This document shows positions 40,576-54,842 of a stretch of DNA of 64,000 nt, piece by piece. The notes beneath the pieces are model-generated. The model was not told the DNA's origin. It made no database searches and was given only the letters and a program-made list of their open reading frames with translations. The DNA comes from Bacillota bacterium. Lineage in GTDB: Bacteria > Bacillota > Negativicutes > DSM-13327. The stretch covers positions 1 to 64,000 of the forward strand of contig JAGFZX010000002.1 in the NCBI GenBank assembly GCA_017889585.1. Reading direction: 5' to 3'. The position numbers were made by a program, and so were the translations under genes. Numbering within the stretch: the first letter of the stretch is position 1; each line of letters starts with the position of its first letter.

Positions 40576-40640
40576 GCTGATCAGAAAACTGAAGGCTAAG
40601 GAATTGTTCCGTATGCGGAACTGCCTTAGCCTTTTTCTTT
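40576..40640 (+). promoter_or_regulatory. Leader element 19 with terminator (triple array, first)
   Basis: GCTGA, TCAG/CTGA stem, AGGC in a GGCTAAGG/CCTTAGCC terminator with T5. First of three in series. Confidence 0.78.
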
Positions 40641-40697
40641 TTGACTAGTAATAGATAAGTGCCATACTTCTATAGATATTGTGGCATCAGTTAAATG

Positions 40698-40752
40698 GCT
40701 GATTAGAAAAACTGAAGGCTAAAAGTTTCTCATAGGTAGAATTCTTTTAGCC
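40698..40752 (+). promoter_or_regulatory. Leader element 20 with weak terminator (triple array, second)
   Basis: GCTGA, TTAG/CTGA inner stem (one U-G pair), AGGC in a GGCTAAAAG/CTTTTAGCC hairpin, followed by GATTATAT rather than a T-run. Confidence 0.65.
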
Positions 40753-40769
40753 GATTATATCATCTTAAA

Positions 40770-40902
40770 GCTGACTGGATAACCAGAGGCTGGGTTTTCG
40801 CGGGATCGAAGAGTATAACACTTTCCGATTCCAAGTAAGGGCAACTAAGGCTTTGTGCAAGCCAAGTTTTCTTTATATAGGCGGAAATCCAGTCTCTTTT
40901 TT
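40770..40902 (+). promoter_or_regulatory. Leader element 21, terminator split by an insertion (triple array, third)
   Basis: GCTGA, CTGG/CCAG stem, AGGC. The terminator arms (GAGGCTGG and CCAGTCTC with T6) match element 3, but the loop holds about 80 extra bases. These resemble the repeat at 48.76-48.85 kb (AGTATAACACTTTC, TTCCAAGTAAG, ACTAAGGCTT). Confidence 0.7.
40800..40880 (+). repeat. Interspersed repeat copy A, inside the leader 21 terminator loop
   Basis: Shares AGTATAACACTTTC, TTCCAAGTAAG and ACTAAGGCTT blocks with 48.76-48.85 kb. A short AGAAAGTATAAG match also occurs near 6830. Possibly a REP or MITE-like element. Confidence 0.6.
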
Positions 40903-40921: not shown

Positions 40922-42013
40922 ATGGAAAAAAATAAAGATCAGATGACTCCGTTGGAACGTTTTGCGGCTTATAACAAGCAAGAATCAATTGATCGTCTGC
41001 CTTGTGTTCCCATTGTCGGTAATACGGCAGCACGGGTTATTGGGGTTCGCGTATCGGATTTTCGAGGGAATGGTAAGTTAATAGCGAAGGCCCATATTGA
41101 ATCCTATCAGCTGTTTCGTTATGATACCGTTCGAATCTTTACAGATTTGTATGTGCAGGCTGAGGCTATGGGGGCCGAAGTTCATTATCCAATGGATGAA
41201 ACGGCATATTTGAAAGTGCCTGCCATTGAAGCAGTCAGTCAGATTGACAACTTGCAACCAGCTAATCCTTACCTGGATGGTAATTTACCTCACCACCTTG
41301 AAGCAATGAAAATTGCAATGGATGCCATAGGTCATGAGGTTCCGATTACTGGAGCTTTGATTGCACCTTTTACCAATGCTGCTTTTTTAATTGGTACAGA
41401 GAACCTAGTGCGATTGGTAGGTAAAAATCCAGAGGCCGTTCATAAACTTTGTGAAGTTTCCTTGCAGACGGCACTTCAATATGCTAAAGCCATCATTGAC
41501 ATAGGTTGTACACCAAGTTTGACTGATGCCATGTCTTCTACTACGGTAATTAGTCCGCGACAGTTTCGAGAATTTTCGGTTCCTTATTTAAAAAGGTTAA
41601 TTGATTATATACATTCTCGTGGAAAAACAGTGACTTTGCACGTTTGTGGCAAGACAGCGAAGATCTGGGAGGATATGTGTGATGCTGGAGCTGACTGTCT
41701 TAGTATTGATAATGATGCTAGTTTGTTAGACGCAAAGGCTAAAGTTGGTTTTAGGTCTAGGTTGATGGGGAATATCAAACCTTCTGAAACTATGTTACAA
41801 GGTACAATTCATGATGTCCGAAAGGCTGTATATCAATGTGTTGCTCAAGGATTTGATAATCCGAAAGGATATATTGTCGCTAGCGGTTGTAGTCTACCGA
41901 CTGAAACACCATTTGAGAATATTAAAGCCATGTTAGATGCAGTAAGAGAAATAGGTTATCCCATACATGGGAGCCAGTTGAAGGAAGGGGTCGTGGAAGG
42001 TGTTAAGTTCTAA
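40922..42013 (+). CDS. MtaA/UroD-family methyltransferase
   Basis: 363 residues. The zinc motif HVCGKT is at about 239 and CSLPTETP near 322 gives the third thiol ligand. ATG after ATAAGGAGAG. It moves a methyl group between the corrinoid protein of this operon and a thiol or other acceptor. The stop overlaps the next paralog by 14 bp, so the two may form a heterodimer. Confidence 0.85.
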   Translation: MEKNKDQMTPLERFAAYNKQESIDRLPCVPIVGNTAARVIGVRVSDFRGNGKLIAKAHIESYQLFRYDTVRIFTDLYVQAEAMGAEVHYPMDETAYLKVPAIEAVSQIDNLQPANPYLDGNLPHHLEAMKIAMDAIGHEVPITGALIAPFTNAAFLIGTENLVRLVGKNPEAVHKLCEVSLQTALQYAKAIIDIGCTPSLTDAMSSTTVISPRQFREFSVPYLKRLIDYIHSRGKTVTLHVCGKTAKIWEDMCDAGADCLSIDNDASLLDAKAKVGFRSRLMGNIKPSETMLQGTIHDVRKAVYQCVAQGFDNPKGYIVASGCSLPTETPFENIKAMLDAVREIGYPIHGSQLKEGVVEGVKF

Positions 42014-43016
42014 AGAACGGTTACTTACAGTATTGCGAAAGGGTAAAGTAGATCGTCCACCTGTTATTTGTACAGGTGGCATGATGAATGCAGCGATAGT
42101 AGAGATTATGAATAATACAGGGCATACCCTGCCAGAGGCTCATAGTGATGCAGAGTTGATGGCTCACCTTGCTGGTGATGTATATGAGCAGACAGGGTTT
42201 GAGAATATCGGAATTCCCTTTTGCATGACAGTGGAAGCCGAGGTTTTAGGTAGTGAGGTTACTTATGGAACGCTGATTTGTGAACCGAAAATCATGCAAG
42301 AAGTTTTTCCCACTGTTAGTGTGGTAGAAACAAAAAGTATTAATACCATGCTAGATGACGGGCGTATAAATACAGTGGTTAAAGCTACGGCCATACTGGC
42401 GGAGCGTTACCCGGATGTGCCCATTATCGGAAATTTAACAGGTCCAATCAGTACAGCAGCTTCTTTAGTAGATCCCATATCTTTATTGAAAGAGTTTAGA
42501 AAGAAACCAGCAGAATGTCATCGGGTATTGGATTATGTTACAACTCTAATTGTTGGTTTTGCTGAACGGATGATTGCTAGTGGTGCTACGGTCATTTCGA
42601 TTGCTGATCCAACGGCTACTGGTGAAATATTAGGGCCTAAAGTGTTTAGGGAATTTGCTGTTTTATATCTTAATCGGATTATTGATGCAGTACATGCTAA
42701 GAATATTCCCGTTTTGGTGCATATTTGTGGGAATATGAATACTGTACAATCTTTAATTCCTGAGATTAGAGCAGATGCCATCAGTACCGATGCCCTTGTT
42801 AACCTAAGGCAACTAAAGGCTGATTACTCCCAGCTTACAACCATGGGAAATGTGAGTACTTATTTGCTGGAATTTGGCTCTGTAGAAAAAGTGGCCCAGC
42901 AAACTCAACGATTAGTTCAGGATGGAGTGGACATTATTTCACCTGCTTGTGGATTGAGTACGTCCACTTCTTTAAAATTAATCAGGGCGATGACTGACGC
43001 GGTGAAGGAGGGCTAA
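42000..43016 (+). CDS. MtaA/UroD-family methyltransferase, second copy
   Basis: 338 residues, GTG start inside the previous gene. HICGNM zinc motif at about 241 and ACGLSTST at about 319. Shares its architecture with the 40.9-kb and 0.8-kb proteins but is divergent, suggesting separate methyl donors or acceptors. Confidence 0.85.
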   Translation: MLSSKERLLTVLRKGKVDRPPVICTGGMMNAAIVEIMNNTGHTLPEAHSDAELMAHLAGDVYEQTGFENIGIPFCMTVEAEVLGSEVTYGTLICEPKIMQEVFPTVSVVETKSINTMLDDGRINTVVKATAILAERYPDVPIIGNLTGPISTAASLVDPISLLKEFRKKPAECHRVLDYVTTLIVGFAERMIASGATVISIADPTATGEILGPKVFREFAVLYLNRIIDAVHAKNIPVLVHICGNMNTVQSLIPEIRADAISTDALVNLRQLKADYSQLTTMGNVSTYLLEFGSVEKVAQQTQRLVQDGVDIISPACGLSTSTSLKLIRAMTDAVKEG

Positions 43017-43020
43017 TGTT

Positions 43021-44640
43021 ATGATAGAAGTCGTTTTTCATCATGCAGGTCAAGAGACAAGTGCTAGGGTTAATGTGGGCGATGATCTGTTAACTGCAGC
43101 TAGACAGGGGGGAGTAATACTAGAGTCTCCTTGTAATGGGAATGGGACGTGCGGTAAATGCAAAGTAAAAATCCTATCATCCTTAGCAGAAGAGGAGATT
43201 GTACTGGCGTGTCATACCAAGGTTGATCATGATGTAGTGGTAGAAATCATTGAGCGTCATGACAGTGGAAATCTTCAAATTAAGCAGGATGGCTTGGTTA
43301 ACAGTGGTGAGATTGACAGTATTATTACCAAGAAGTATATTTCCCCGAGTAATGTTACCCATGTATATCGAAAAAAGGAATTGATTTCAACAGAGCAGGG
43401 CAATACAGAGGAAGAAATTTATGGTTTAGCCATTGATATTGGTACAACCACATTAGTTGTTTCGCTGGTTAATTTGTTGACAGGGGAAGAACTTGCAGGA
43501 GCAGGTGCTCTTAATCCACAAAGTAGACTGGGGCAAGATGTATTATCGCGGATAAGGTATGCATCTAAAGAACAGGGTTTAGTAGAAATGAATCAACTGA
43601 TCATTGAAGAATTAAATAGAATGATCCTACAAGTAACAGCAGATGCTGCCATTGTGGCTCACCATGTTTATGAATTGGTATTGAGCGGCAATACGTGTAT
43701 GTTACATTTAGCAGTAAAGGCCAATCCAGGGCCGTTAGGTAAATATCCCTATACGCCAGTGATTCGCGGTGGCAACTCCATAGCAGCAAATGACCTTGGT
43801 CTTTACGCTGTCCCTAATGCAGAGGCATATTTGTCACCTATTATTTCTGCCTATGTAGGAGGAGATATTACTTCAGGTATTTTGGTTTCGCGTTTGGCTG
43901 AGCGGGAAGATACCAATCTATTTATAGACATTGGCACAAATGGGGAGATTGTACTCGCAACTGGCGGAAGGCTAGTAGCAACATCCACTGCTGCTGGCCC
44001 GGCTTTTGAAGGTATGAATATTTCTTGTGGCATGCGGGCAGCACCAGGTGCAATCGAGGGTTTTTCTTTAACGACAGACGGGGAGAGGACATTGAAAAAC
44101 ATTGGCGATCAAGCTGCTGTTGGCATCTGCGGTAGTGGTTTACTGGATATAGTAGCAGCGTTGGTCCAAAATGGAGTCATTGAAGGCAACGGAAAGTTCA
44201 GTAAAACCATGAATGAAAACCTGAGTGCACTACTCACTCAAGTGAATGGGAAAGTTGTTTTTTCTGTTGCAGAGGGAGTCTATCTATCTCAACCAGATAT
44301 ACGTCAGGTTCAATTGGCAAAGGGGGCAATTCGGGCGGGGATTGAGGCACTGCTTGAATATCAGAATATAACTGTCGCAGATGTAGATAGAGTGTTGATT
44401 GCTGGTTCTTTTGGTTATCATTTGAATCCGGACAGCTTAATTGGGATTGGTTTGTTGCCTGAAGCATTTCGGGATAAAATAGAGTTTTTGGGAAATACAT
44501 CCAAAACAGGCGGGCAAGAATTTTTACTAAATCAAGGATCTCGTTTGGCTATTGATCAGACGATTGCAGAGATTGCGGTGCTAGAATTGGCTACTGTAGA
44601 TAAGTTTGATCGATTATTTGTTAAATGTTTAGAATTTTAG
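43021..44640 (+). CDS. Corrinoid-activation protein (RamA/RACo-like, DUF4445)
   Basis: 539 residues. An N-terminal 2Fe-2S ferredoxin domain (CNGNGTCGKC at about 39-48, with a fourth Cys at about 65) is followed by an ASKHA-type ATPase (LAIDIGTTTLVVSL at about 138; FIDIGTNGEI at about 301). Such proteins use ATP to reduce Co(II) corrinoids to active Co(I). It starts 5 bp after the second MtaA-like gene. Confidence 0.88.
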   Translation: MIEVVFHHAGQETSARVNVGDDLLTAARQGGVILESPCNGNGTCGKCKVKILSSLAEEEIVLACHTKVDHDVVVEIIERHDSGNLQIKQDGLVNSGEIDSIITKKYISPSNVTHVYRKKELISTEQGNTEEEIYGLAIDIGTTTLVVSLVNLLTGEELAGAGALNPQSRLGQDVLSRIRYASKEQGLVEMNQLIIEELNRMILQVTADAAIVAHHVYELVLSGNTCMLHLAVKANPGPLGKYPYTPVIRGGNSIAANDLGLYAVPNAEAYLSPIISAYVGGDITSGILVSRLAEREDTNLFIDIGTNGEIVLATGGRLVATSTAAGPAFEGMNISCGMRAAPGAIEGFSLTTDGERTLKNIGDQAAVGICGSGLLDIVAALVQNGVIEGNGKFSKTMNENLSALLTQVNGKVVFSVAEGVYLSQPDIRQVQLAKGAIRAGIEALLEYQNITVADVDRVLIAGSFGYHLNPDSLIGIGLLPEAFRDKIEFLGNTSKTGGQEFLLNQGSRLAIDQTIAEIAVLELATVDKFDRLFVKCLEF

Positions 44641-44650
44641 GAGGATGAAT

Positions 44651-45304
44651 ATGTCAAAACATACAGAGAATAAACTTTCGTGCACCTATTGCGGGGTATT
44701 AAATTGCCACAAACAAGACAAAACATTTCCTGAGTTTTGCCTGACATCAAAGTATGATGATGAGAATGCTGTAGCGGTAGAACTTTACCGAGAAGAAGGT
44801 GAAACAGCAAAAATTGCTCGTGCCGCAGCAGAAATAGAAGGAATTTATTATGGAAAATTGACCAGGGTAGAAGAAATTATCGCGTTTAGCAAAAGAATAG
44901 GAGCTAAAAAAATCGGGATTGCGACTTGTGTTGGCTTGATTAATGAAGCTAAAACATTTATGAGAATATTAGAAGCTAAGGGGCTGGAAAGTTATAGTGT
45001 ACTCTGCAAAGTTGGATCAGTGGATAAAACAGAAATTGGCATTCCTGAAGAATTAAAGGTGCAGCAAGGCGCCCATGAGTCACTTTGTAATCCTGTTTTA
45101 CAGGCGATGATACTGAATAAACAGCAGACTGATTTGAATGTAATTATTGGTTTGTGTGTTGGTCATGATTCTTTATTTATCAAGCATTCAGAAGCCCCGG
45201 TGACCACACTGATTACTAAAGATCGTATTCTAGGTCATAATCCAGCGGCGGCATTATATACCAGTAGTTTTTACTATAAAAGACTTTTAGAGAAAGAAGA
45301 GTGA
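44651..45304 (+). CDS. DUF1847 protein
   Basis: ATG 44651, six bases after GGAGG, is preferred to 44645. About 217 residues with the cysteine-rich start CTYCGVLNCHK, and IGLCVGHDSLFIKHS and GHNPAAALYT as in DUF1847. The metal-binding family has no settled function and often occurs beside corrinoid methyltransferase genes. Confidence 0.82.
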   Translation: MSKHTENKLSCTYCGVLNCHKQDKTFPEFCLTSKYDDENAVAVELYREEGETAKIARAAAEIEGIYYGKLTRVEEIIAFSKRIGAKKIGIATCVGLINEAKTFMRILEAKGLESYSVLCKVGSVDKTEIGIPEELKVQQGAHESLCNPVLQAMILNKQQTDLNVIIGLCVGHDSLFIKHSEAPVTTLITKDRILGHNPAAALYTSSFYYKRLLEKEE

Positions 45305-45317
45305 GGAGTTGATGATC

Positions 45318-46391
45318 ATGTTTAAGAAAACGAGTCTATTGGTATCCCTGGTTTTAATCTTTAGTTTGCTTATTGCTGGGTGCAGTTCCTCATCAGTTAA
45401 GACCTCAGATAACAATACACCTGCAGCGGCAGTGGAAAAAATTAAATTTAATGTTGGCTATTTGCCAGCTGTGGGTCATGTACTGTACTTTGTTGCTCAA
45501 GAAAAAGGCTTTTTTGCCGAAGAAGGTCTTGATGTAGAATTATTTCAATTTACCAATTCAGGGGAAGGGTTAAATGCCATCAAAAGCGGTAAATTGGATG
45601 CTGGATCTTTTGGTACAGCAGCACCCTTAACTTTTATTGATAAAGGTACACCTTTTGTCATATTTGGTGGGATGCAGAGTGAAGGACATGCCGTTGTTAC
45701 AAAACCAGAAAATGTGGATAAATTTAAGACGTTGCAAGGTTTCGTAGGAACCAAAGTAGCGACAGTGAGGCTGGCGACTGGTGATGCGGTGTGGCGTCAT
45801 GCCTTGTCGAAAGCAGGTATTGATTGGAAGACACAAGTAACAGTACAGGAATTAGATTCTCCAGCCGCTGTTTTGGAAGCCGTGAAAAAAGGCAGCGCTG
45901 ATGCCGGACTCGTCTGGGTTCCATTTACCGAAATGGCTGAACAACAAGGACTTAAAATAGTTGACTGGTCATCTCAGTATCTTAATAGTCATGTTTGTTG
46001 CCGTTTAGTAGGTCTTGCTGATAATGTTAAAAATAATAAAGAAGGCTTTACTCGTTTCAGTCGTGCTTTAATTAGGGCTTATGATTTTTATCTTAATAAT
46101 CAGGATGAAACTGTTGAGATTATTAATAAATATGTAAAATTGGATAAAACCCTGTTGAAACAAGCAGCTTACAGTGGTCATATTCACAGTATTCCTGATC
46201 CCGACAGAAAACGGGTAGTTGCATTCTGGGAAGCTATGAAGGCCATTGGTTATCTTAAAGGGGAGCAAAATATTAATCAGTTTATTAACACTGATATTTA
46301 TCATGAAGCGCTAGAACAGTTAAGAGGACGTTATCCACAAAATCCTATCTATATTCAGCTAGAAAAAGATTATAAAGCCAATGATCTTTAA
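45318..46391 (+). CDS. ABC transporter substrate-binding lipoprotein, SsuA-like
   Basis: ATG 45318 fits GAGGAG best. 357 residues; lipobox IAGC, SsuA-type YLPAVGHVLYFVAQEKGFFAEEGLDVE. The NSHVCCRLVG double cysteine matches the 23-kb SsuA. Within the corrinoid operon it probably binds a methylated or sulfonated substrate. Confidence 0.86.
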   Translation: MFKKTSLLVSLVLIFSLLIAGCSSSSVKTSDNNTPAAAVEKIKFNVGYLPAVGHVLYFVAQEKGFFAEEGLDVELFQFTNSGEGLNAIKSGKLDAGSFGTAAPLTFIDKGTPFVIFGGMQSEGHAVVTKPENVDKFKTLQGFVGTKVATVRLATGDAVWRHALSKAGIDWKTQVTVQELDSPAAVLEAVKKGSADAGLVWVPFTEMAEQQGLKIVDWSSQYLNSHVCCRLVGLADNVKNNKEGFTRFSRALIRAYDFYLNNQDETVEIINKYVKLDKTLLKQAAYSGHIHSIPDPDRKRVVAFWEAMKAIGYLKGEQNINQFINTDIYHEALEQLRGRYPQNPIYIQLEKDYKANDL

Positions 46392-46400
46392 AAAGGAGGA

Positions 46401-47207
46401 TTGATTATTCTGGGATTTTTAAGTTTAAAAGATGTATCTCTTGTTTATCCAGGGCAAAAGAATGGTGAACCTTCTCTCCAGAATATCAATCTGGAAATAG
46501 AGGAAGGAGAATTTATTGCTGTTGTGGGTCCAAGTGGTGGTGGCAAAAGTTCAACCATCTCTTTATTGGCTGGTTTAGTAGAGCCGACCACTGGTCAAAT
46601 TTTGCTAAAAGGAAAGCCGATAACTGGACCTGGTCTTGATCGAGCCGTAGTATTTCAAGACTATTCCCTTTTTCCCTGGATGACAGCCTTAGAAAATATT
46701 TATTTTGCACTCAAACAAGTCGGAAATGTTTCCCGAGAAAAAGCGAAAAAATTTTTAGATATAGTGGGTCTAGGAGAGGCTGCTACGAAATATCCTGGTG
46801 AATTATCTGGAGGAATGAGGCAACGGGTGGCTATTGCCCGTGCCTTTGCCTTGGGAGCACCTATCTATCTTATGGATGAACCTTTTGGGGCAGTAGATGC
46901 TAAGAATCGGATATATCTGCAGGATTTATTAATACGGCTTTGGCAGGAAACAGGGGTGAAGAAGACTGTATTTCTTGTTACTCATGATATTGATGAAGCG
47001 TTATATTTAGCGGATAGAATCGTCGTTTTTACTACAAGTCCAGGTCGTATCCGTAAGGTGATACAAGTACCATTCAAGCGTCCACGTAACCGGATTCCTC
47101 TCATTCAGGACCAGTCATATATACAATTGCGCAATGAGCTTCTTTCCCTATTGCAAAGCGAAATCATTGAAGAACTCCAAAAGGTGGAAGGCGGTGCAGG
47201 GATTTGA
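46401..47207 (+). CDS. ABC transporter ATPase, SsuB/TauB family
   Basis: Walker A GPSGGGKSS (second Gly unusual; last residue Ser), signature LSGGMRQRVAIARAF, Walker B IYLMDEPFGAVDAKNR. The track's TTG at 46401 is only 1 bp after AAAGGAGG, so a rare start (ATT 46407 or CTG 46410) may be used. It is followed by a TTG-started permease at an ATTTGA junction. Confidence 0.85.
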   Translation: MIILGFLSLKDVSLVYPGQKNGEPSLQNINLEIEEGEFIAVVGPSGGGKSSTISLLAGLVEPTTGQILLKGKPITGPGLDRAVVFQDYSLFPWMTALENIYFALKQVGNVSREKAKKFLDIVGLGEAATKYPGELSGGMRQRVAIARAFALGAPIYLMDEPFGAVDAKNRIYLQDLLIRLWQETGVKKTVFLVTHDIDEALYLADRIVVFTTSPGRIRKVIQVPFKRPRNRIPLIQDQSYIQLRNELLSLLQSEIIEELQKVEGGAGI

Positions 47208-47953
47208 AACAAAGTGTCGTTGATCGGATATTGTTGTTTGTTGGATTACTCCTGTTATGGCAGACGCTTACTGGTTGGTTCCCATTGCTCGATCCATTGT
47301 TGTTTCCAGCACCGAATAAAGTATTATCTTTACTGGTTGAAGATAAAAGTGTTTTTTGGAAGAGTATTTTAAGTTCCTTTCGTCTGCTTTTTGGTGGTTA
47401 TGTATTGGCAGTTATTTTGGCTATACCATTAGGATTGGTTGTTGGTTGGAATAAACGATTGCATACAACGCTGGAACCACTGATCAATATTTTAGGACCT
47501 ATTCCACCGATTGTTTACATTCCTTATGCCATAGCGTTATTGCCAAGTTTTACTCATTCTTCAATTTTCATCATTTTCATTGGTGCTTTTTGGCCATTAT
47601 TTATTAATACTGTGGCTGGGGTTAGAACAGTGGAAAAAGGAATTATTGATTCAGCCCGCACATTAGGGGTTAGTCAGTGGAGCATGCTGATTCATATTTT
47701 ATTGCCTGGTGCTATGCCGCAAATTTTTACAGGTGGTACAGTTAGTTTGGTATTGGCGTTTATCTTACTTACAGCTGCAGAAATGATCGGAGCGACTAGT
47801 GGACTGGGCTGGTATGTTAAATATTTTGCTGATTTTGCCGATTATCCTAGAGTAGTAGCAGGTATTTTGGTGATAGGTGTAGTTGTATTGGGGTTGACTA
47901 TTTTTTATAATCGTTTAGAACGCCATCTTCTTCGTTGGAGAAAAATGGGATAA
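47204..47953 (+). CDS. ABC transporter permease, SsuC/TauC family
   Basis: 249 residues, six predicted membrane segments, EAA loop SARTLGVSQWSMLIHILLPGAMP. Coupled to the ATPase gene through overlapping stop and TTG start (GGGATTTGA), the same arrangement as in met operon 2. Confidence 0.86.
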   Translation: MKQSVVDRILLFVGLLLLWQTLTGWFPLLDPLLFPAPNKVLSLLVEDKSVFWKSILSSFRLLFGGYVLAVILAIPLGLVVGWNKRLHTTLEPLINILGPIPPIVYIPYAIALLPSFTHSSIFIIFIGAFWPLFINTVAGVRTVEKGIIDSARTLGVSQWSMLIHILLPGAMPQIFTGGTVSLVLAFILLTAAEMIGATSGLGWYVKYFADFADYPRVVAGILVIGVVVLGLTIFYNRLERHLLRWRKMG

Positions 47954-47990
47954 TGATAGCAATTTTGCAAATAAATAAGGAGGTTTTACC

Positions 47991-48647
47991 ATGTCGACTA
48001 AAGAACAAGAATTATTCAAAAAATTATCGGATGCTGTTGTTGAGATGAATGAGGATGAGGTTGTAAGTCTTTCCCATCAAATTGTATCTGAGGAAATTGA
48101 TGCCTATGAGGCCATTGATCAAGGTCTTTCTGATGGAATGGAAAAAGCGGGTAAATTATTTGAAGATGAGGAATATTTTATTCCTGAATTGCTGTTGTGT
48201 TCAGATGCAATGTATGCCGGTCTAGATGTATTGAAGCCTCATATAAAACAGGAAGAACATGTAGAAAAGCATAAAGTTATCATCGGTGTCGTTGAAGGTG
48301 ACACTCATGACATTGGTAAAAATTTAGTCAAAATTATGCTTGAAACTTCAGGATTTGAAGTTTTCGACCTGGGTAGGGATATTCCACCACAACAATTCGT
48401 TGCGAAGGCAAAAGAAGTTGGGGCAAAAATTATTGCATTAGCAACACTCATGACGACTACCATGGATGGCATGGATGCAGTGATACACTTGCTGAAGGAA
48501 GAAAATATAAAAAATGAATATAAAGTCATTATTGGTGGTGGCCCCATTTCCCAGAGTTTTGCTGATAAAATAGGGGCAGATGCATATGCTGTTAATGCTG
48601 CCGATGCTGTAAAAATTGCTAAGAGGCTTGTAAAGGAGGCTGTTTAG
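47991..48647 (+). CDS. Corrinoid protein (MtaC/MttC-like B12-binding)
   Basis: 218 residues. A helical cap domain (residues 1-85) is followed by a Rossmann B12-binding domain with GDTHDIGKNLV at about 103, which supplies the lower-ligand His to cobalt, and GGGPIS at about 183. It shuttles methyl groups to the MtaA-like proteins and is reactivated by the RamA-like protein. ATAAGGAGG upstream. Confidence 0.9.
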   Translation: MSTKEQELFKKLSDAVVEMNEDEVVSLSHQIVSEEIDAYEAIDQGLSDGMEKAGKLFEDEEYFIPELLLCSDAMYAGLDVLKPHIKQEEHVEKHKVIIGVVEGDTHDIGKNLVKIMLETSGFEVFDLGRDIPPQQFVAKAKEVGAKIIALATLMTTTMDGMDAVIHLLKEENIKNEYKVIIGGGPISQSFADKIGADAYAVNAADAVKIAKRLVKEAV

Positions 48648-48696: not shown

Positions 48697-48751
48697 AAAA
48701 AAGCAAAGGTTGGAGAGCGTTGAAGGTAGTTCTCTAGCCTTTGCTTTTTGC
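48697..48751. terminator. Bidirectional terminator
   Basis: AAAAAGCAAAGGTTGGAGA pairs with TCTCTAGCCTTTGCTTTTT around a 14-nt loop, between convergent operons. The stem wording (AAAGGTTGG...TAGCCTTTG) resembles leader terminators, but no leader core precedes it. Confidence 0.75.
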
Positions 48752-48754
48752 CTG

Positions 48755-48855
48755 CGGCATCAGAAAGTATAACACTTTCTTGCTTCCAAGTAAGAACGAC
48801 TAAGGCTTCTGCTCGCGTCTGAGGACTTGGCAAGCCTTAGTCGTTCTTATAGTGT
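48755..48855. repeat. Interspersed repeat copy B
   Basis: Contains GAAAGTATAACACTTTC, TTCCAAGTAAG, then an inverted repeat AAGAACGACTAAGGCTT ... AAGCCTTAGTCGTTCTT. Related to the insertion in the leader 21 terminator. Confidence 0.65.
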
Positions 48856-48859
48856 ACTT

Positions 48860-49525
48860 CTAATGGGCAACTCGGTAGAGTTGCCCATTTTGTAGATTAA
48901 ATACTTCATCAGCGCGTGCTGCCAAAGCAGGATCATGGGTAATAATCACGACACTGGTTCCCGTATTCCGTGCTTGTAGCAAACAATCGGCAACGCTTGT
49001 AGCCAAGGATGGGTCTAAGTCATTGGTTGGTTCATCAGCCAATAAGATGGGTGGATTCAATAATAAGGCTCTTGCAAGGGAAACACGGCGCAATTGACCT
49101 AAACTAAGTTGTTGGGGTTTGTGATTTAGGCGGTGTTCCATGTTAAAGTGAGTTAATAATCCGATTGCTCTATTTTCTAAGGTTTTATCTTTCAGGGTTA
49201 ACCAGGCAGGTACCATTACGTTTTCGAGGGCAGTGAGAGAGTTGATCAAACGGGCCCTTTGAAAAACAAAGCCAAAATATTTTCCCCGTATTTTGGCTTG
49301 TTCTTGTTGATTTAGGGCACCCACATCAAGGTTATCAATTAGTATTCTCCCAGAAGTAGTATTTTGCAGTAATCCCATGATGGACAAGAGGGTAGTTTTT
49401 CCACCACCCGAGTCGCCAACAATGGCTAACGCTGTTCCTTTTTTTACAGTAAGAGATAGGTTTGATAAAATTGTATCCTCGCCATAACGTTTACTAATAT
49501 TTTGTAGTTCAATTAAGTTGTTCAT
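48860..49525 (-). CDS. ABC transporter ATPase (LolD/MacB type)
   Basis: ATG 49525, behind GTGGAGGGAA, is preferred to 49555. The 221-residue product has Walker A GDSGGGKTT, signature LSLGQLRRVSLARAL (LSLGQ replaces LSGGQ) and Walker B ILLADEPTNDLD. With the adjacent FtsX-type permease it forms a mechanotransmission or export-type ABC system, last in a leader-controlled minus-strand operon. Confidence 0.86.
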   Translation of the reverse strand: MNNLIELQNISKRYGEDTILSNLSLTVKKGTALAIVGDSGGGKTTLLSIMGLLQNTTSGRILIDNLDVGALNQQEQAKIRGKYFGFVFQRARLINSLTALENVMVPAWLTLKDKTLENRAIGLLTHFNMEHRLNHKPQQLSLGQLRRVSLARALLLNPPILLADEPTNDLDPSLATSVADCLLQARNTGTSVVIITHDPALAARADEVFNLQNGQLYRVAH

Positions 49526-49538
49526 GTTTCCCTCCACA

Positions 49539-50738
49539 TTAATCAAATTCCCCACGTGTCATGACAGTACTCGGGTCGACTCGACTACTCCGGTAAGCAG
49601 GTAACCAGGCGGCCAGAGCTCCTAAGCCCGAGAAAATTACCGTCAATGTGAGAGAAAGAGTAGCAAAGAAATACCAGGTTGGCTGAACGAAGGGAAAGGA
49701 TTGGTGGGACTTAAGTAGTACTAAACTTGCCATGTATAACCCGCCACCTAAAAGAAGACCAGCTAACGATCCAGCTAAAGCGATGACTATCGCTTCTCCC
49801 ACTATAATAGAAGTTATCTCTTGACTAGAAGCCCCAAGTGCTAGGTAAAGTCCCCATTCTGCCTGCCTATCAACAGTTAAAGTATAAAAACGCGAAAAGA
49901 GTTGAAATAACGACAGAAAGACTACCAGCAAGCCGATGCCCCCTAGTAACCAAATGATAACTGTAAATTGATCATTGATGCGTTTTTTAACATCTGCTGC
50001 TACGATGGTTTGCACGTAATCAACTTGTTGAATTTTTGTCACGATATCCATGATATTAGCTGATTCGTCGACTTGCACTAAAATTGTGGAAATGAGTTCA
50101 GCAGGCGGGCCTTGTTTTTCCCATATTGATTTTAATGCAGGGGTTTTGCCAACAACACGTCGTGCTTCAGCCATACTGACAAAGAGTGAATAATCCAGAG
50201 TTGTTCCAGTTTCTTCCGCTACCGTTACAATGTCATACCAAGTTCCGAGAATCATAATTTTATTTTGCGTCCAAGTGGGTACTTTCGCTCCGAGAATGAC
50301 CTCATTGTCTTTGAGTTCTGTTTTTTGTAGTTTTTTTAGCCATGGCGCAACAACCCAGTCGCTGGTTGGATCATAGCCAATCATACGGTTATTTGTTCCA
50401 ATGTCATGGCAGTCCGCTGTCAAACTGTGAGTGAAAAATTGGGGTGTTGCCTGGTGAATTCCAGGAATGGAACGTATGGCATCAACGGTTTTTTGTGGCA
50501 TGTAGGTATTGGCTGCCGCTCCGCCAAATAATACAAGGCTAGGTTCTATGGTTGCACCACCAGGTATAATGACAATATCAGCCCCCATGCGTTGTTTAGA
50601 AATTTCCATACCGGAAGACACGCCGTTATAAAGAGCCGATATGCATAAAATAATGGCAACCCCGATGGCAATGGAAAATAGGATGGCAAAGCTTTGCAGC
50701 TTGCGATGCAAGAGACTTTTCCAGATTAGAAATGTCAT
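49539..50738 (-). CDS. ABC transporter permease, MacB/FtsX family
   Basis: 399 residues: an N-terminal membrane helix, a periplasmic MacB_PCD-like domain (about 40-250), then three helices forming the FtsX domain. It shares ends with the ATPase gene and overlaps the DUF4418 gene by 4 bp. Exports or senses an unknown compound. Confidence 0.86.
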   Translation of the reverse strand: MTFLIWKSLLHRKLQSFAILFSIAIGVAIILCISALYNGVSSGMEISKQRMGADIVIIPGGATIEPSLVLFGGAAANTYMPQKTVDAIRSIPGIHQATPQFFTHSLTADCHDIGTNNRMIGYDPTSDWVVAPWLKKLQKTELKDNEVILGAKVPTWTQNKIMILGTWYDIVTVAEETGTTLDYSLFVSMAEARRVVGKTPALKSIWEKQGPPAELISTILVQVDESANIMDIVTKIQQVDYVQTIVAADVKKRINDQFTVIIWLLGGIGLLVVFLSLFQLFSRFYTLTVDRQAEWGLYLALGASSQEITSIIVGEAIVIALAGSLAGLLLGGGLYMASLVLLKSHQSFPFVQPTWYFFATLSLTLTVIFSGLGALAAWLPAYRSSRVDPSTVMTRGEFD

Positions 50739-51142
50739 GTAACCTCCTCCGATTGTGTTTTGCTGATTAAAAAGGCGATTAAAAGTCCTGTGATAGCAAG
50801 TATGCTACCGCCGATTGTCGTAAAAGAGGCGGTTTTTAGGCAAGCTCCATTCTCGCAGATACCGATAGCCCACGATTTGGGTAAGATGATGACGGTAATT
50901 CCAAGCAAGAGGACAATAAAGCTAGCTAATAAGCGACCTTCGGTCGTGCGTAGTACCAACAGACTGGCAGAAAGTATTACAGCGAGTAATGTAATGATAA
51001 ATTCAGCCTGATAAGCATAATGGCATTGCATAGGACTTCCGTTACCTGTATGCCCTGTGCAAATTGATACAAACCTGGGCAAAATCAAAAGTGAAACGCT
51101 AATGATAAGAGCGATCCATGATAATATTTTATAACGATTCAT
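50735..51142 (-). CDS. DUF4418 membrane protein
   Basis: 135 residues, four hydrophobic segments and conserved cysteines in CTGHTGNGSPMQCHY and GICENGACL, typical of DUF4418. Members are found next to MacB-type ABC genes. Function unknown. Confidence 0.8.
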   Translation of the reverse strand: MNRYKILSWIALIISVSLLILPRFVSICTGHTGNGSPMQCHYAYQAEFIITLLAVILSASLLVLRTTEGRLLASFIVLLLGITVIILPKSWAIGICENGACLKTASFTTIGGSILAITGLLIAFLISKTQSEEVT

Positions 51143-51147
51143 GATGG

Positions 51148-51324
51148 TTAACTCCTTTTTTGTATAAGATCCAAGTCATTGAGAAATAGTGAAGAGTGCC
51201 CATGTTTATGGGGTGTGTTAGGATCTATTTGTCTCAAAGGAACCCTGTTTAGTCCATTGTACAAAATGACAATTCCCAAGGAAAATATTAGAAAAGCCAA
51301 GACTAGAAATCGATTAAGTGCCAT
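51148..51324 (-). CDS. Small membrane protein, 58 residues (not in ORF track)
   Basis: On the minus strand ATG 51324, seven bases after GGGTGA, opens MALNRFLVLAFLIFSLGIVI, one membrane helix, followed by a polar tail with HKHGHSS. The stop lies 5 bp before the DUF4418 ATG. It is the first gene after the minus-strand leader. I do not recognise the family; the His-rich motif hints at metal contact. Confidence 0.7.
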   Translation of the reverse strand: MALNRFLVLAFLIFSLGIVILYNGLNRVPLRQIDPNTPHKHGHSSLFLNDLDLIQKRS

Positions 51325-51414
51325 TGTTTATCACCCTTTTAATAGTTATTTTACTTATCTTCGTTTTCTTTGCCGTAACACTTATCTTCTAACCAATTAA
51401 GCCACCTCCCTTAT

Positions 51415-51483
51415 AAAAAATAAAAACGAAAAGGCCGAGTTTATCCCGTAGGATAGACTCGGCCTTTAGTTTTTCTAACCAGC
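51415..51483 (-). promoter_or_regulatory. Leader element 22 with terminator, minus strand
   Basis: Read on the minus strand: GCTGG, TTAG/CTAA inner stem, AGGC in an AAGGCCGAGT/ACTCGGCCTT hairpin, then TTCGTTTTTATTTTT. It shows that the element is oriented with its gene and not a plus-strand repeat. Confidence 0.8.
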
Positions 51484-51530: not shown

Positions 51531-51559
51531 ATGATAACATCTATGGTTAGAATTGTAAA
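51531..51559 (-). promoter_or_regulatory. SigA-type promoter, minus strand
   Basis: Minus-strand TTTACA and TATCAT with a 17-bp spacer, 47 bp before leader element 22. Confidence 0.6.
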
Positions 51560-51702: not shown

Positions 51703-51737
51703 ATAAAGAAAGTAGAGTGTTTATATCGTATTTTGTG

Positions 51738-51797
51738 GCTGATCAGAAAAACTGAAGGCTAAAGTAATGTCCTTTTGGATATACTTTAGCCTTTTTT
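51738..51797 (+). promoter_or_regulatory. Leader element 23 with terminator (tandem, first)
   Basis: GCTGA, TCAG/CTGA stem, AGGC in a GGCTAAAGTA hairpin with its complement and T6. Confidence 0.8.
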
Positions 51798-51877
51798 ATT
51801 TAGCCATACAGTATCTGGCAGGTATTCAATACCTGAGGGCTGCAGAAATGGCAATCGACAAATGAAGAGTAGTTTTG

Positions 51878-51948
51878 ACTGATCAGTAGTACATACTGAA
51901 GGCAAAGACGGATCCTAATATAAGGATCAATCTTTGCCTTCTTTGTTT
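51878..51948 (+). promoter_or_regulatory. Leader element 24 with terminator (tandem, second)
   Basis: ACTGA, TCAG/CTGA stem with a long loop, AGGC in a GGCAAAGAcGGATC hairpin with its complement; T-run interrupted (TTCTTTGTTT). 80 bp after element 23, before nitrogenase-like pair 3. Confidence 0.75.
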
Positions 51949-51973: not shown

Positions 51974-53314
51974 ATGAGCAAATTTATTGAGAGACCACGC
52001 TATTTATGTACACTTGGGGGTGCAATAGCAACTTTGAAAGTCTTGCCACGTGTAGTGCCTATTATCCATGCTGCAGCTGGTTGTGGTGGTAATATTGCCA
52101 ATGCCTTGCATGGTGCATCTGGCTATTTGGGCAGTGGCTATTGTGCAGGACTAGCGCTACCGAGTTCTAATATCTATGAAAAAGATATTGTATTTGGTGG
52201 AGAAGAACGATTAACTGAACAAATTACTACAACACTTGAGGTTATTGATGGTGACTTGTATTTTGTAGTCACTGGATGCATGGTGGATATTATTGGTGAT
52301 GATGCAGTGGCGGTGGCAAAGCGGTTTCACCAAGATGGCAAGCCGGTTTTGGCAGCTGAGACAGGTGGCTTTAAAGGCAATTCTTATAAAGGGTACGATA
52401 TTGTTCTAAGTAAACTATTTGCTGACTTTGTTGAAAAGAATCCAGTAAAGGAAAAGAATGTTGTTAATTTATTTGGTATTGTCCCCATTCAGGATGTATT
52501 TTGGAAAGGTAATTTGAATACCTTAAAAGCACTTCTTGAAAAAATTGGTTATGAGGTTAATAGCTTTTTTGGTGAAGGAGAAACACTGGAAAATCTTAAA
52601 TATGCTGGTGCTGCTAGTTTTAATATCCTTGTATCTGATGTATATGGGGTTGAACCTGCCAAAATATTCGAAGAAACCCATGGAGTACCTTATGTGATTG
52701 CAACCTTACCTATTGGTTCAGCTGGTACTGAAAGATTCTTGCGCACAGTAGGCGAAGCCTTAGGGACTGAAAAGACCCTCGTTGAGCAGGTCATTGCCGA
52801 GGAAAAAGCCCGCTATTATAGCTATATAGAACGATTGGCTGATGTCTATAATGATTTGGATTTTCAACGGTACAGTGTAGTGGTGGCTGATGTGAATTAC
52901 GCTCCAGCTCTGGCTAGATTTCTGGCTGATGATTTGGGATGGTTACCAGAGCTCGTGGTGATTACCGATGTCCTTACGGAAGAAGAGCAGCAATTGGTAG
53001 AAGCAAGATTTGAAGACTTTACGTCTGGTATTCGTCCTAAAGTTGTATTTGATACCAATACATCGAATGTGAGCAAACATTTCAATGCTTCTTGGCCGCG
53101 TAATAACAACGATCGATATTTCGATAGTTTTAGCCCCGCATTTGTTTTGGGAAGTAGTTTAGACCGGGATTTTGCTTCATCCATAGGAGCACCGCACTTA
53201 AGTGTATCTTATCCGGTATCCAACAGGGTTGTCCTGGATAGAGCCTATGTTGGTTACCGCGGAGCATTAAGTTTAGTGGAAGATATTTTTGGATTATTAG
53301 TAGAAAGCAGATAG
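51974..53314 (+). CDS. Nitrogenase-like component 1, beta subunit, pair 3
   Basis: 446 residues. Cys12 (YLCTLGG), Cys37 (AAAGCGG) and Cys102 (TGCMVDIIGDD) match P-cluster ligands. It is closest by eye to the pair-1 beta subunit (shared ETGGFKGNSY and DDLGWLPE). The gene order here is beta then alpha, opposite to pairs 1 and 2. Confidence 0.9.
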   Translation: MSKFIERPRYLCTLGGAIATLKVLPRVVPIIHAAAGCGGNIANALHGASGYLGSGYCAGLALPSSNIYEKDIVFGGEERLTEQITTTLEVIDGDLYFVVTGCMVDIIGDDAVAVAKRFHQDGKPVLAAETGGFKGNSYKGYDIVLSKLFADFVEKNPVKEKNVVNLFGIVPIQDVFWKGNLNTLKALLEKIGYEVNSFFGEGETLENLKYAGAASFNILVSDVYGVEPAKIFEETHGVPYVIATLPIGSAGTERFLRTVGEALGTEKTLVEQVIAEEKARYYSYIERLADVYNDLDFQRYSVVVADVNYAPALARFLADDLGWLPELVVITDVLTEEEQQLVEARFEDFTSGIRPKVVFDTNTSNVSKHFNASWPRNNNDRYFDSFSPAFVLGSSLDRDFASSIGAPHLSVSYPVSNRVVLDRAYVGYRGALSLVEDIFGLLVESR

Positions 53315-53327
53315 GAGAGAGAATGAA

Positions 53328-54842
53328 ATGGATTATATAAAAGATAAAGCACCTCCAGTACGTGAAGATCGTTTAAGAGCTTGTAATGCATATGGAGGAT
53401 CATGCAACAATTTGGTGGAACAATCCCAAAAGGGATGCCTTAATGGCATCAAGAGGACATTTTCCCAAACTCAAGGATGCCAGTTAAACTTAAGTCTAGC
53501 TATATTGAACACGATTCGTGATGCAGTGGTTATTGTGCATGGTCCCCTTGGTTGTGGTGGAGCTAATTTATCAGTTGCTGGAATCAATAAGAACTTCCAA
53601 CAATTGCGAGACAGTAACGCACGGGGATTGCTATGGGTTAATACCAATATGGGTGAGTCAGAAGTCATCAATGGTGGTGAAAATAATTTACGAGATGCCA
53701 TTTTGCATGCTGAAAAGGAATTTCGTCCGAGTGCCATTATTATTGTGAATAGCTGTGTACCAGCCATTATCGGCGATGACATTGATAGTGTTGTCGAAGG
53801 AGTACAAGGTGAAATAAAGGCCAAAATTGTACCTGTGCATTGCGAAGGTTTCAAGACGAAAATCATGGCTAGTGCTTATGATGCAGTATATCATGGAATC
53901 TTACGGAATCTGATACCAGAGCTGGATGCAGATGCAGTATCTAAACAAGACAATAAAAATCAACTTGAAGAATTACAGGAAAAATATCGTATGAGTCGTA
54001 CGGTGAATGTGCTCAATGTTTCGTCTATGAGTCGCGTTGACGAGTATGAATTGGTGAGGTTATTAAAAGCTTTGGATTTAAATTTAAACATATTGCCTTG
54101 TTATGCTCATCCTGAAGATTTTCTTAAAGCCACTGAGGCGGCACTTAATGTGAGTATTTGTGCGACTCATGACGATTATTTTGTTGAACATTTAAAAACA
54201 AAATATAATATTCCCTTTATTCTTCGAACCATTCCAGTTGGTGTTAAATATACAAATCGTTGGATTGAGGATATTGCTAAATTCTTTGGCCTTGAAGAAG
54301 AGGCTCAACGATTTATTGCCCAAGAAACTAAATTACTCGAAGAAGCATTGGAACCATATCGAGCATTGTTTAAAGGGAAAAGAGTCGTGATTGGTGGTGG
54401 TGAAATTCGTGTTGTTGCTAATGCTGAACTTCTTACTTACCTTGGATTTCAAGTAGTGGGTATGCGTGCTTATCATTATGATCAGTTTGCTGATGAAATG
54501 CTAGAAGAAGTCGCAGAAAGTGATAAAGTTCCATTTAATGTAGCCACTGGACAGCCATTTGAACAGGCCAATTTGCTTGCCAATTTGAAACCAGACTTGT
54601 ATGTCGGTCATGTTAATAACAATGGGTGGGCAGGAAAACAGGGGATTCCCGTTTTACCAATCTTTCACCAAAGTAATATCTTCCTCGGTTATACAGGGGT
54701 ATTCGAATTTGCTCGGCGTTTAGCCAGAGTGCTACGAAATTCTTCATTTAATCGCAATTTAGGTGAAAATACGAAACTTCCTTACTTTGAAAACTGGTAT
54801 GAAAATGATGCTTTTTCCTACATCGATGAGGGAAATGTATAG
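53328..54842 (+). CDS. Nitrogenase-like component 1, alpha subunit, pair 3
   Basis: 504 residues. Cys51, Cys76 (GPLGCGG) and Cys143 (NSCVPAIIGDD) fall at the same positions as in pair 1; Cys278 (SICATHDDY) matches the FeMo-co cysteine. The NifD His442 position is Leu (FLGYTG). A 14-residue insertion (about 205-218) separates the first two domains. It lies 13 bp after the beta gene and 37 bp before cysK. Confidence 0.9.
   Translation: MDYIKDKAPPVREDRLRACNAYGGSCNNLVEQSQKGCLNGIKRTFSQTQGCQLNLSLAILNTIRDAVVIVHGPLGCGGANLSVAGINKNFQQLRDSNARGLLWVNTNMGESEVINGGENNLRDAILHAEKEFRPSAIIIVNSCVPAIIGDDIDSVVEGVQGEIKAKIVPVHCEGFKTKIMASAYDAVYHGILRNLIPELDADAVSKQDNKNQLEELQEKYRMSRTVNVLNVSSMSRVDEYELVRLLKALDLNLNILPCYAHPEDFLKATEAALNVSICATHDDYFVEHLKTKYNIPFILRTIPVGVKYTNRWIEDIAKFFGLEEEAQRFIAQETKLLEEALEPYRALFKGKRVVIGGGEIRVVANAELLTYLGFQVVGMRAYHYDQFADEMLEEVAESDKVPFNVATGQPFEQANLLANLKPDLYVGHVNNNGWAGKQGIPVLPIFHQSNIFLGYTGVFEFARRLARVLRNSSFNRNLGENTKLPYFENWYENDAFSYIDEGNV

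What the first reader, a model, noticed from the sequence alone, without database searches (positions are those of the whole stretch)
51148..51483. Minus-strand leader controls an unstudied membrane operon: 58-aa protein, DUF4418, MacB/LolD-type ABC
Element 22 shows the regulon includes a four-gene operon of unknown function on the opposite strand. The first gene, missing from the ORF track, encodes a one-helix protein with HKHGHSS. The ATPase signature is LSLGQ instead of LSGGQ. Between leader and gene lies an open stretch ending NWLEDKCYGKENEDK behind GGGAGG but without a usual start codon (51351-51407).
Basis: partly seen in the sequence, partly recalled or inferred. Interest (0 to 1): 0.6.

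Follow-up and report, generated by a model that had tools for sequence, protein, structure and literature searches.

The report
RNA attenuator controlling conserved membrane operon
A short RNA on/off switch found before many sulfur genes of anaerobic Negativicutes also sits, conserved across genera, before a four-gene membrane operon that travels with nitrogenase-like enzymes and is related to modules of a bacterial iron-uptake system, so cells may couple sulfur salvage to metal supply.

Summary
The minus-strand leader (51483-51433) is a true copy of a window-wide attenuator: a 22-nt hairpin (GCU-GA-YYRG-loop-CYRR-A-GGC) whose 3' arm is also the first arm of an intrinsic terminator. The hairpin covaries and is absent from Rfam. 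My model built from it finds about 40 copies in this genome. Behind the leader lies a real operon: a 58-aa His-rich single-TM protein, DUF4418, a MacB/FtsX-type permease and an ATPase. The genes are conserved, and the leader stands directly upstream in 19 of 34 distinct DUF4418 loci, but in none of the copies in iron-uptake loci. The 15-residue stretch is not a peptide but the remnant of a 66-aa secreted-protein gene, intact in two close relatives. LSLGQ is a family trait. DUF4418 co-occurs with nitrogenase-like D genes (23 of 27 genomes) and, where these are missing, with the P19 iron system (9 of 10 genera). Best explanation: a stand-alone, Fet-like type VII ABC module for metal (iron) or thiol-redox work at the membrane, switched with the sulfur-salvage regulon. 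The leader-operon link is well supported by comparison; sulfur response, regulator and substrate are inferred.

The parts
51531..51559 (-). sigma-70-like promoter TTTACA-17-TATCAT (TG before -10)
   Evidence: consensus scan, 10 of 12; same hexamers and spacing in L024 and L026; not tested experimentally
51462..51483 (-). antiterminator-type hairpin GCU-GG-UUAG-AAAAA-CUAA-A-GGC
   Evidence: folds as (((..((((.....)))).))) at -2.6 kcal/mol; covariation in A2 and in 88 elements picked without a P2 pairing rule
51433..51464 (-). intrinsic terminator hairpin sharing GGC with the upstream hairpin, followed by TTTTCGTTTTT
   Evidence: -21.9 kcal/mol; covarying helix; terminator scan (listed on + strand)
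51351..51410 (-).
   Evidence: intact MVRRLLIFGVLLLSLLSAGLVSAAHDEKEC...DKCCDKDNKENEEN* in L024 and L026 at the same place; internal deletion of about 190 bp here
51148..51324 (-). 58-aa single-TM protein with His-rich C-terminal part (HKHGHSS)
   Evidence: homologues in 17 of 18 fetched loci, always just before DUF4418; no Pfam or NCBIfam hit
50735..51142 (-). DUF4418 protein, four TM helices, invariant C28, C40, C96, C101, M38, W91
   Evidence: PF14387 54.3 bits; alignments A1/A4; AlphaFold2 pLDDT 80
49539..50738 (-). MacB/FtsX-type (type VII) ABC permease with invariant C110 followed by His or Cys
   Evidence: PF12704 + PF02687; AlphaFold2 + Foldseek to LolE, MacB, HrtB, BceB; conservation; start overlaps the DUF4418 stop (ATGA)
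48860..49525 (-). ABC ATPase, LolD/MacB type, signature LSLGQ
   Evidence: TIGR02211 190 bits, below its cut-off of 307; LS[LIVQF]GQ in all 29 rows (22 distinct loci)
48751..48850 (.). palindromic dispersed repeat downstream of the operon
   Evidence: core sequence at least 31 times in the genome
51735..51943 (+). two tandem leaders of the same family for the divergent nitrogenase-like pair (51974-54842 +)
   Evidence: R1 64.9 and 59.0 bits; nifE/nifD-like proteins

Best explanation
The element is a transcription attenuator of a sulfur-assimilation/salvage regulon, and it controls this operon. Nascent RNA from the 51559-51531 promoter first forms a weak 22-nt hairpin. Unless a regulator (an unidentified RNA-binding protein or small ligand) holds that hairpin, its GGC arm is taken over by a strong terminator and transcription stops before the genes. 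When the regulator signals sulfur need, read-through expresses a conserved four-gene module. The module is a stand-alone type VII (MacB/FtsX-like) ABC system with DUF4418 and a His-rich single-TM protein, related to the ABC part of FTR1/P19 (Fet) iron-uptake systems. It most likely does ATP-driven metal (iron) handling or thiol-redox work at the outer face of the membrane, for the iron-rich nitrogenase-like (probably C-S cleaving) enzymes of the same regulon. Shown here by comparison: leader family, covariation, leader-operon linkage, gene conservation, co-occurrences. Inferred: direction of control, sulfur as signal, iron or thiol redox as substrate chemistry.
For: Leader: about 40 copies in this genome, 30 or more on this contig, the rest before cysK, two MetY-like genes, a MetNIQ operon and others; 102 of 342 Negativicutes genomes have matches; hairpin -2.6 to -7.3 against terminator -13 to -24 kcal/mol in the window copies. 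Linkage. Quartet synteny. Co-occurrence with nitrogenase-like D. Iron link: quartet inside FTR1-P19-FtrD-FtsX-FtsX-ATPase...FeoB (L037) and FTR1-P19-FtrD loci (L043/L116), DUF4418-like triad in L112; DUF4418 with P19 in 36 of 48 genomes and, in genera without the nitrogenase-like gene, in 9 of 10. Ligand-type residues. Published: fetABCD needed for growth at low iron in Campylobacter (PMC10783030); methylthio-alkane reductase carries an [Fe8S9C] cluster (PMC12552129); MarHDK-like genes near corrinoid methyltransferase clusters (PMC10418091).
Against: No expression or binding data. No P19 gene found in this genome (84% complete), so the module must work without FetMP here. Fet systems use two permeases and a DUF2318 protein; this operon has one permease and none. 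Some relatives keep leader-small-DUF4418 without the adjacent ABC genes (L035, L046). The regulator is unknown; there is no CAT_RBD protein. Phylogenetic non-independence inflates the genome-level p-values.
Confidence: 0.5

Rival explanations
1. Same leader, but the transporter moves a sulfur compound: uptake of an organosulfur substrate or export of a thiol product of the nitrogenase-like enzymes.
For: Sits next to Ssu/Tau-like and Met transporters, cysK and nitrogenase-like genes, and carries their leader.
Against: No substrate-binding protein in the quartet; type VII ABC proteins are not known as importers (my knowledge); copies also occur in iron-uptake loci without the leader; DUF4418 tracks P19 in genera without the nitrogenase-like genes.
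Confidence: 0.25
2. The module serves another metal of the regulon (cobalt for the corrinoid proteins, nickel, molybdenum) rather than iron.
For: Corrinoid proteins and methyltransferases are frequent neighbours; His/Cys-rich outer surfaces fit several metals.
Against: The only known-metal loci that contain the quartet are FTR1/P19/FeoB iron loci.
Confidence: 0.15
3. The module extracts or matures envelope lipids or lipoproteins (Lol/YbbAP-like) and has no metal role.
For: Best fold and sequence matches of permease and ATPase are LolE, MacB and YbbA.
Against: Scores stay below the curated LolCE/LolD cut-offs; invariant Cys pattern in DUF4418 and C-[H/C] in the permease are not features of Lol proteins as far as I know.
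Confidence: 0.12
4. The leader is only a chance terminator and not regulatory for this operon.
For: Intrinsic terminators are common in intergenic regions.
Against: Conserved 22-nt hairpin with covariation, same place in 19 of 34 distinct loci, promoter upstream, no upstream gene for it to terminate.
Confidence: 0.04

Closest known systems
FTR1/P19 (FetMP-FetABCDEF) iron-uptake systems, ABC part FetBCD
   Same: MacB/FtsX-type permease plus LolD-like ATPase next to a Cys-bearing membrane protein; the quartet itself occurs inside two such loci (L037, L043)
   Different: one permease instead of FetB+FetC; DUF4418 instead of DUF2318/FtrD; no P19 found in this genome; ATPase LS[LIV]GQ against LSGGE in the FetD-like ATPases; leader absent from the iron loci
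MacB / LolCDE / HrtBA / YbbAP (type VII ABC transporters)
   Same: fold of the permease (Foldseek E 1e-10 to 1e-18), LolD-like ATPase
   Different: no MacA-like adaptor in the operon; scores below the curated cut-offs; DUF4418 and His-rich small partner; invariant C-[H/C] in the outer domain
RAT antiterminators of BglG/LicT proteins
   Same: small hairpin overlapping the 5' arm of an intrinsic terminator
   Different: different sequence and internal loops (from memory); no CAT_RBD protein in this genome
ANTAR-controlled two-hairpin leaders
   Same: protein-held hairpin prevents the terminator
   Different: one hairpin with a mostly 4-9 nt loop per terminator here, not two hexaloop hairpins (from memory); a single ANTAR protein in the genome
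Methylthio-alkane reductase (MarHDK) and type I MGC regions
   Same: nitrogenase-like DK, NifH/NifB-like, cysK, corrinoid methyltransferases as neighbours
   Different: DUF4418 is not named in the MGC or MAR papers read (full-text search finds one DUF4418 paper, on Bifidobacterium)

Membership tests
DUF4418 (PF14387) | score over the curated cut-off | tested here: met
   54.3 bits against 27
Type VII (MacB/FtsX) ABC transporter | MacB_PCD + FtsX permease with LolD-like ATPase | tested here: met
MacAB-TolC efflux pump | MacA adaptor in the operon; permease and ATPase fused | tested here: not met
   separate genes, no MacA-like gene in the operon
LolCDE | curated LolCE and LolD equivalog scores; paired permeases | tested here: not met
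   37.5 of 362 and 190.5 of 307 bits, one permease
FTR1/P19 Fet iron-uptake system | FTR1 permease and P19 periplasmic protein in the same locus or genome | tested here: not met
   no P19 in this genome, 84% complete; met for the quartets in L037 and L043/L116; FTR1 not searched genome-wide
FTR1/P19 Fet iron-uptake system | role in growth at low iron | not testable with these tools
   published for Campylobacter fetA-D (PMC10783030), not for this operon
the window's leader family (this work) | GCU-GR-YYRG-loop-CYRR-A-GGY hairpin sharing GGY with a terminator | tested here: met
   64 bits, E 3e-16, though R1 was trained on this copy; found by descriptor; pair counts
Rfam RNA families | score over any gathering threshold | tested here: not met
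   0 matches in the window; nothing credible at E up to 10 around the operon
BglG/LicT RAT antitermination | CAT_RBD protein in the genome | tested here: not met
   no PF03123 match, control genomes positive; genome 84% complete
ANTAR antitermination | two tandem hairpins with hexanucleotide loops before one terminator | tested here: not met
   one hairpin with a loop of mostly 4-9 nt directly joined to each terminator

The most novel reading that the evidence does not exclude
A previously undescribed antitermination element only 22 nt long governs a genome-wide sulfur regulon in Negativicutes and Heliobacteria, read by an unknown regulator. Through it a dedicated metal-handling type VII ABC module (His-rich small protein + DUF4418 + permease + LSxGQ ATPase) is co-induced with nitrogenase-like C-S cleaving enzymes, linking sulfur salvage to iron supply.
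Probability: 0.4. Interest if true: 0.78.

Novelty: new variant of a known kind. Interest (0 to 1): 0.58.

Why it matters
It places an unstudied membrane module (DUF4418 and an unannotated His-rich small protein) firmly inside a regulon with nitrogenase-like enzymes, and gives a concrete hypothesis for what DUF4418 systems do (Fet-like metal or redox work). It also shows that the leader is a widespread, covarying RNA element absent from Rfam whose regulator can now be looked for. If right, iron supply is wired to sulfur salvage at the RNA level, which makes both the unknown regulator and the unexplained ABC part of Fet iron systems testable in anaerobes that can be grown in the laboratory.

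Tried and rejected
Rfam at gathering and at E up to 10: nothing. Fold search of DUF4418 against PDB: four-helix bundles only, best E 0.02, not interpretable. A DsbB/VKOR-like thiol-oxidase reading of DUF4418 (two Cys pairs, four TM) was considered; the fold search gave no support. BglG/CAT and ANTAR mechanisms considered and not met. The 15-residue stretch as a leader peptide rejected after finding the intact gene in relatives. A first descriptor without the terminator condition did not separate well from shuffles, so the terminator was added. Literature searches found no description of this leader, within open-access full text only.

Full report
What was checked. The finding names a minus-strand leader and a four-gene operon at 51483-48860. 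All stated features are present. The genes are tightly packed: the 58-aa ORF stops at 51148, DUF4418 starts at 51142, the permease start overlaps the DUF4418 stop (50738/50735), and the ATPase starts at 49525 behind GGAGG. A sigma-70-like promoter with the same spacing in two relatives lies at 51559-51531.

The leader. Scanning the window by structure gave 28 matches against 3-8 in shuffled sequence; after removing register duplicates and weak hits about 21 remain. Nearly all have the form GCU-GA(or GG)-YYRG-loop-CYRR-A-GGY, where GGY is at once the 3' side of the small hairpin and the first bases of a terminator stem. On 20 window copies 98.6% of cells of the small hairpin pair, with 21 double changes, none of 500 shuffles reaching this. 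Those copies had been chosen with a pairing rule, so I repeated the count on 88 elements chosen without any rule on the four-pair stem: 242 of 264 cells of its three variable pairs are paired, shuffled mean 200, maximum 215 in 2,000 shuffles; most non-pairing rows are the same elements read in a second register. Stem types include UCAG/CUGA, UUAG/CUAA, UUGG/CCAA, CCGG/CCGG, CUGG/CCAG and CCAG/CUGG. In the folded window copies the hairpin is worth -2.6 to -7.3 kcal/mol and the terminator -13 to -24, so termination should win unless something holds the hairpin. That is an inference from energies, not a measurement. Rfam has no match.

Range of the leader. A covariance model (R1) finds 49 matches at E up to 0.1 in the own genome, about 40 of them real after removing opposite-strand echoes. 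Outside the window they precede cysK (L059), two MetY-like genes (L070, L073), a cupin-MetNIQ operon (L076), a DUF1847-like protein followed by a substrate-binding-protein-like gene (L080) and a few others. R1 matches occur in 102 of 342 Negativicutes genomes and also in two Heliobacterium loci. The gene content, not an experiment, is the reason to call the regulon a sulfur regulon.

The operon is conserved. Of 18 related loci fetched, 17 have the small ORF directly before DUF4418, and most continue with permease and ATPase. The small proteins share M-T/N-L-x-R-F-L...G-x-N-R-x-P-F-R and a His-rich tail. DUF4418 has invariant C28, C40, C96, C101. The permease has an invariant C110 followed by His or Cys in 12 of 12 aligned sequences. 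All 29 quartet-type ATPase rows (22 distinct loci) have a residue other than Gly at the third position of LSGGQ, mostly Leu, whereas the FetD-like ATPases of the iron loci read LSGGE. The model of the permease matches LolE, MacB, HrtB and BceB structures; the DUF4418 model (pLDDT 80, four helices) matches nothing informative.

The leader goes with the operon. Within 600 nt upstream of DUF4418 on the same strand R1 finds a leader in 19 of 34 distinct DUF4418 loci, in two or three tandem copies in L029, L032, L044 and L045. Some of these genomes are close relatives, so 19 is not 19 independent events, but they span several families. In L023 the quartet lies downstream of Ssu-like genes behind a leader 1.9 kb away. 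The loci without a leader include both quartets found inside iron-uptake loci (L037, L043/L116) and the distant DUF4418 triads of other families.

The 15-residue stretch. In the two closest relatives (L024, L026) the same place behind GGGAGGTGGC carries an intact TTG-start gene for a 66-aa protein with a signal peptide, ending KDKCCDKDNKENE(E/D)N. In the window only TTG GTT AGA AGA and the last codons remain, joined by an internal deletion of about 190 bp that puts them out of frame. The stretch is therefore a remnant; intact copies exist in the relatives.

What the module may do. Two associations point to function. First, neighbours: nitrogenase-like D/K, NifH, NifB, cysK, Ssu-like transporters, corrinoid proteins and methyltransferases in most loci, including Heliobacterium and Pelotomaculum. 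In 342 genomes, 23 of 27 with the nitrogenase-like D gene have DUF4418, against 25 of the other 315 (p about 1e-18; 13 of 15 genera, p about 3e-8). Second, iron: the quartet sits inside FTR1-P19-FtrD-FtsX-FtsX-ATPase loci in two genera, one of them with FeoB nearby, and a DUF4418-like triad follows such a locus in L112. Among the 80 genera without the nitrogenase-like gene, 18 have P19, and 9 of the 10 with DUF4418 are among these 18 (p about 2e-6). Published work shows that fetA-D are needed for growth at low iron in Campylobacter (PMC10783030), and that methylthio-alkane reductase, a nitrogenase-like enzyme, holds an [Fe8S9C] cluster (PMC12552129). MarHDK-like genes accompany corrinoid methyltransferase clusters (PMC10418091) and occur in heliobacteria (PMC9147875). 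An iron or thiol-redox role in support of these enzymes is the simplest joint reading. Against it: this genome shows no P19 (84% complete), and the quartet lacks the second permease and the DUF2318 protein of Fet systems.

Regulator. No CAT_RBD protein is found in the genome and there is one ANTAR protein, whose known RNA target differs from this element. A LuxR-type response regulator with a histidine kinase sits next to the quartet in several relatives; whether it matters is unknown. The step from signal to hairpin is the main gap.

Limits. R1 was trained on window leaders including the one in question, so its score there is not independent; the descriptor and the relatives are. Genome comparisons are affected by shared ancestry, which the genus-level counts only partly remove. 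Genome completeness weakens absences.

Noticed in passing
window 48751-48850, 40767-40899; L024/L026 upstream of the small ORF: A palindromic dispersed repeat (core AAGAAAGTGTTATACTTTCTGAT) occurs at least 31 times in the genome; one copy sits inside the terminator loop of the leader at 40770, and in two relatives a copy lies inside this operon.
   Followed up: partly
L021 (own genome, contig C22): A second, diverged DUF4418-FtsX-ATPase set lies downstream of a cupin-MetNIQ operon that has an R1 leader (50 bits); it lacks the small ORF.
   Followed up: partly
L029 6951-6698, L044 9600-9750, L045 9599-9733, L032 6885-6738; window 40576-40899, 51735-51943: Leaders often stand in tandem, two or three before one operon, each with its own terminator.
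   Followed up: partly
L022, L027, L028, L030, L034, L044: A histidine kinase and a LuxR-type response regulator are repeatedly near the quartet.
   Followed up: no
L035, L046: Leader, small ORF and DUF4418 are kept without the adjacent permease and ATPase, so these two may work as a unit.
   Followed up: no
window 40922-48647: UroD-type methyltransferases, RamA-like activase, DUF1847-like protein, Ssu-like transporter and corrinoid protein resemble the published type I MGC gene clusters (PMC10418091).
   Followed up: no
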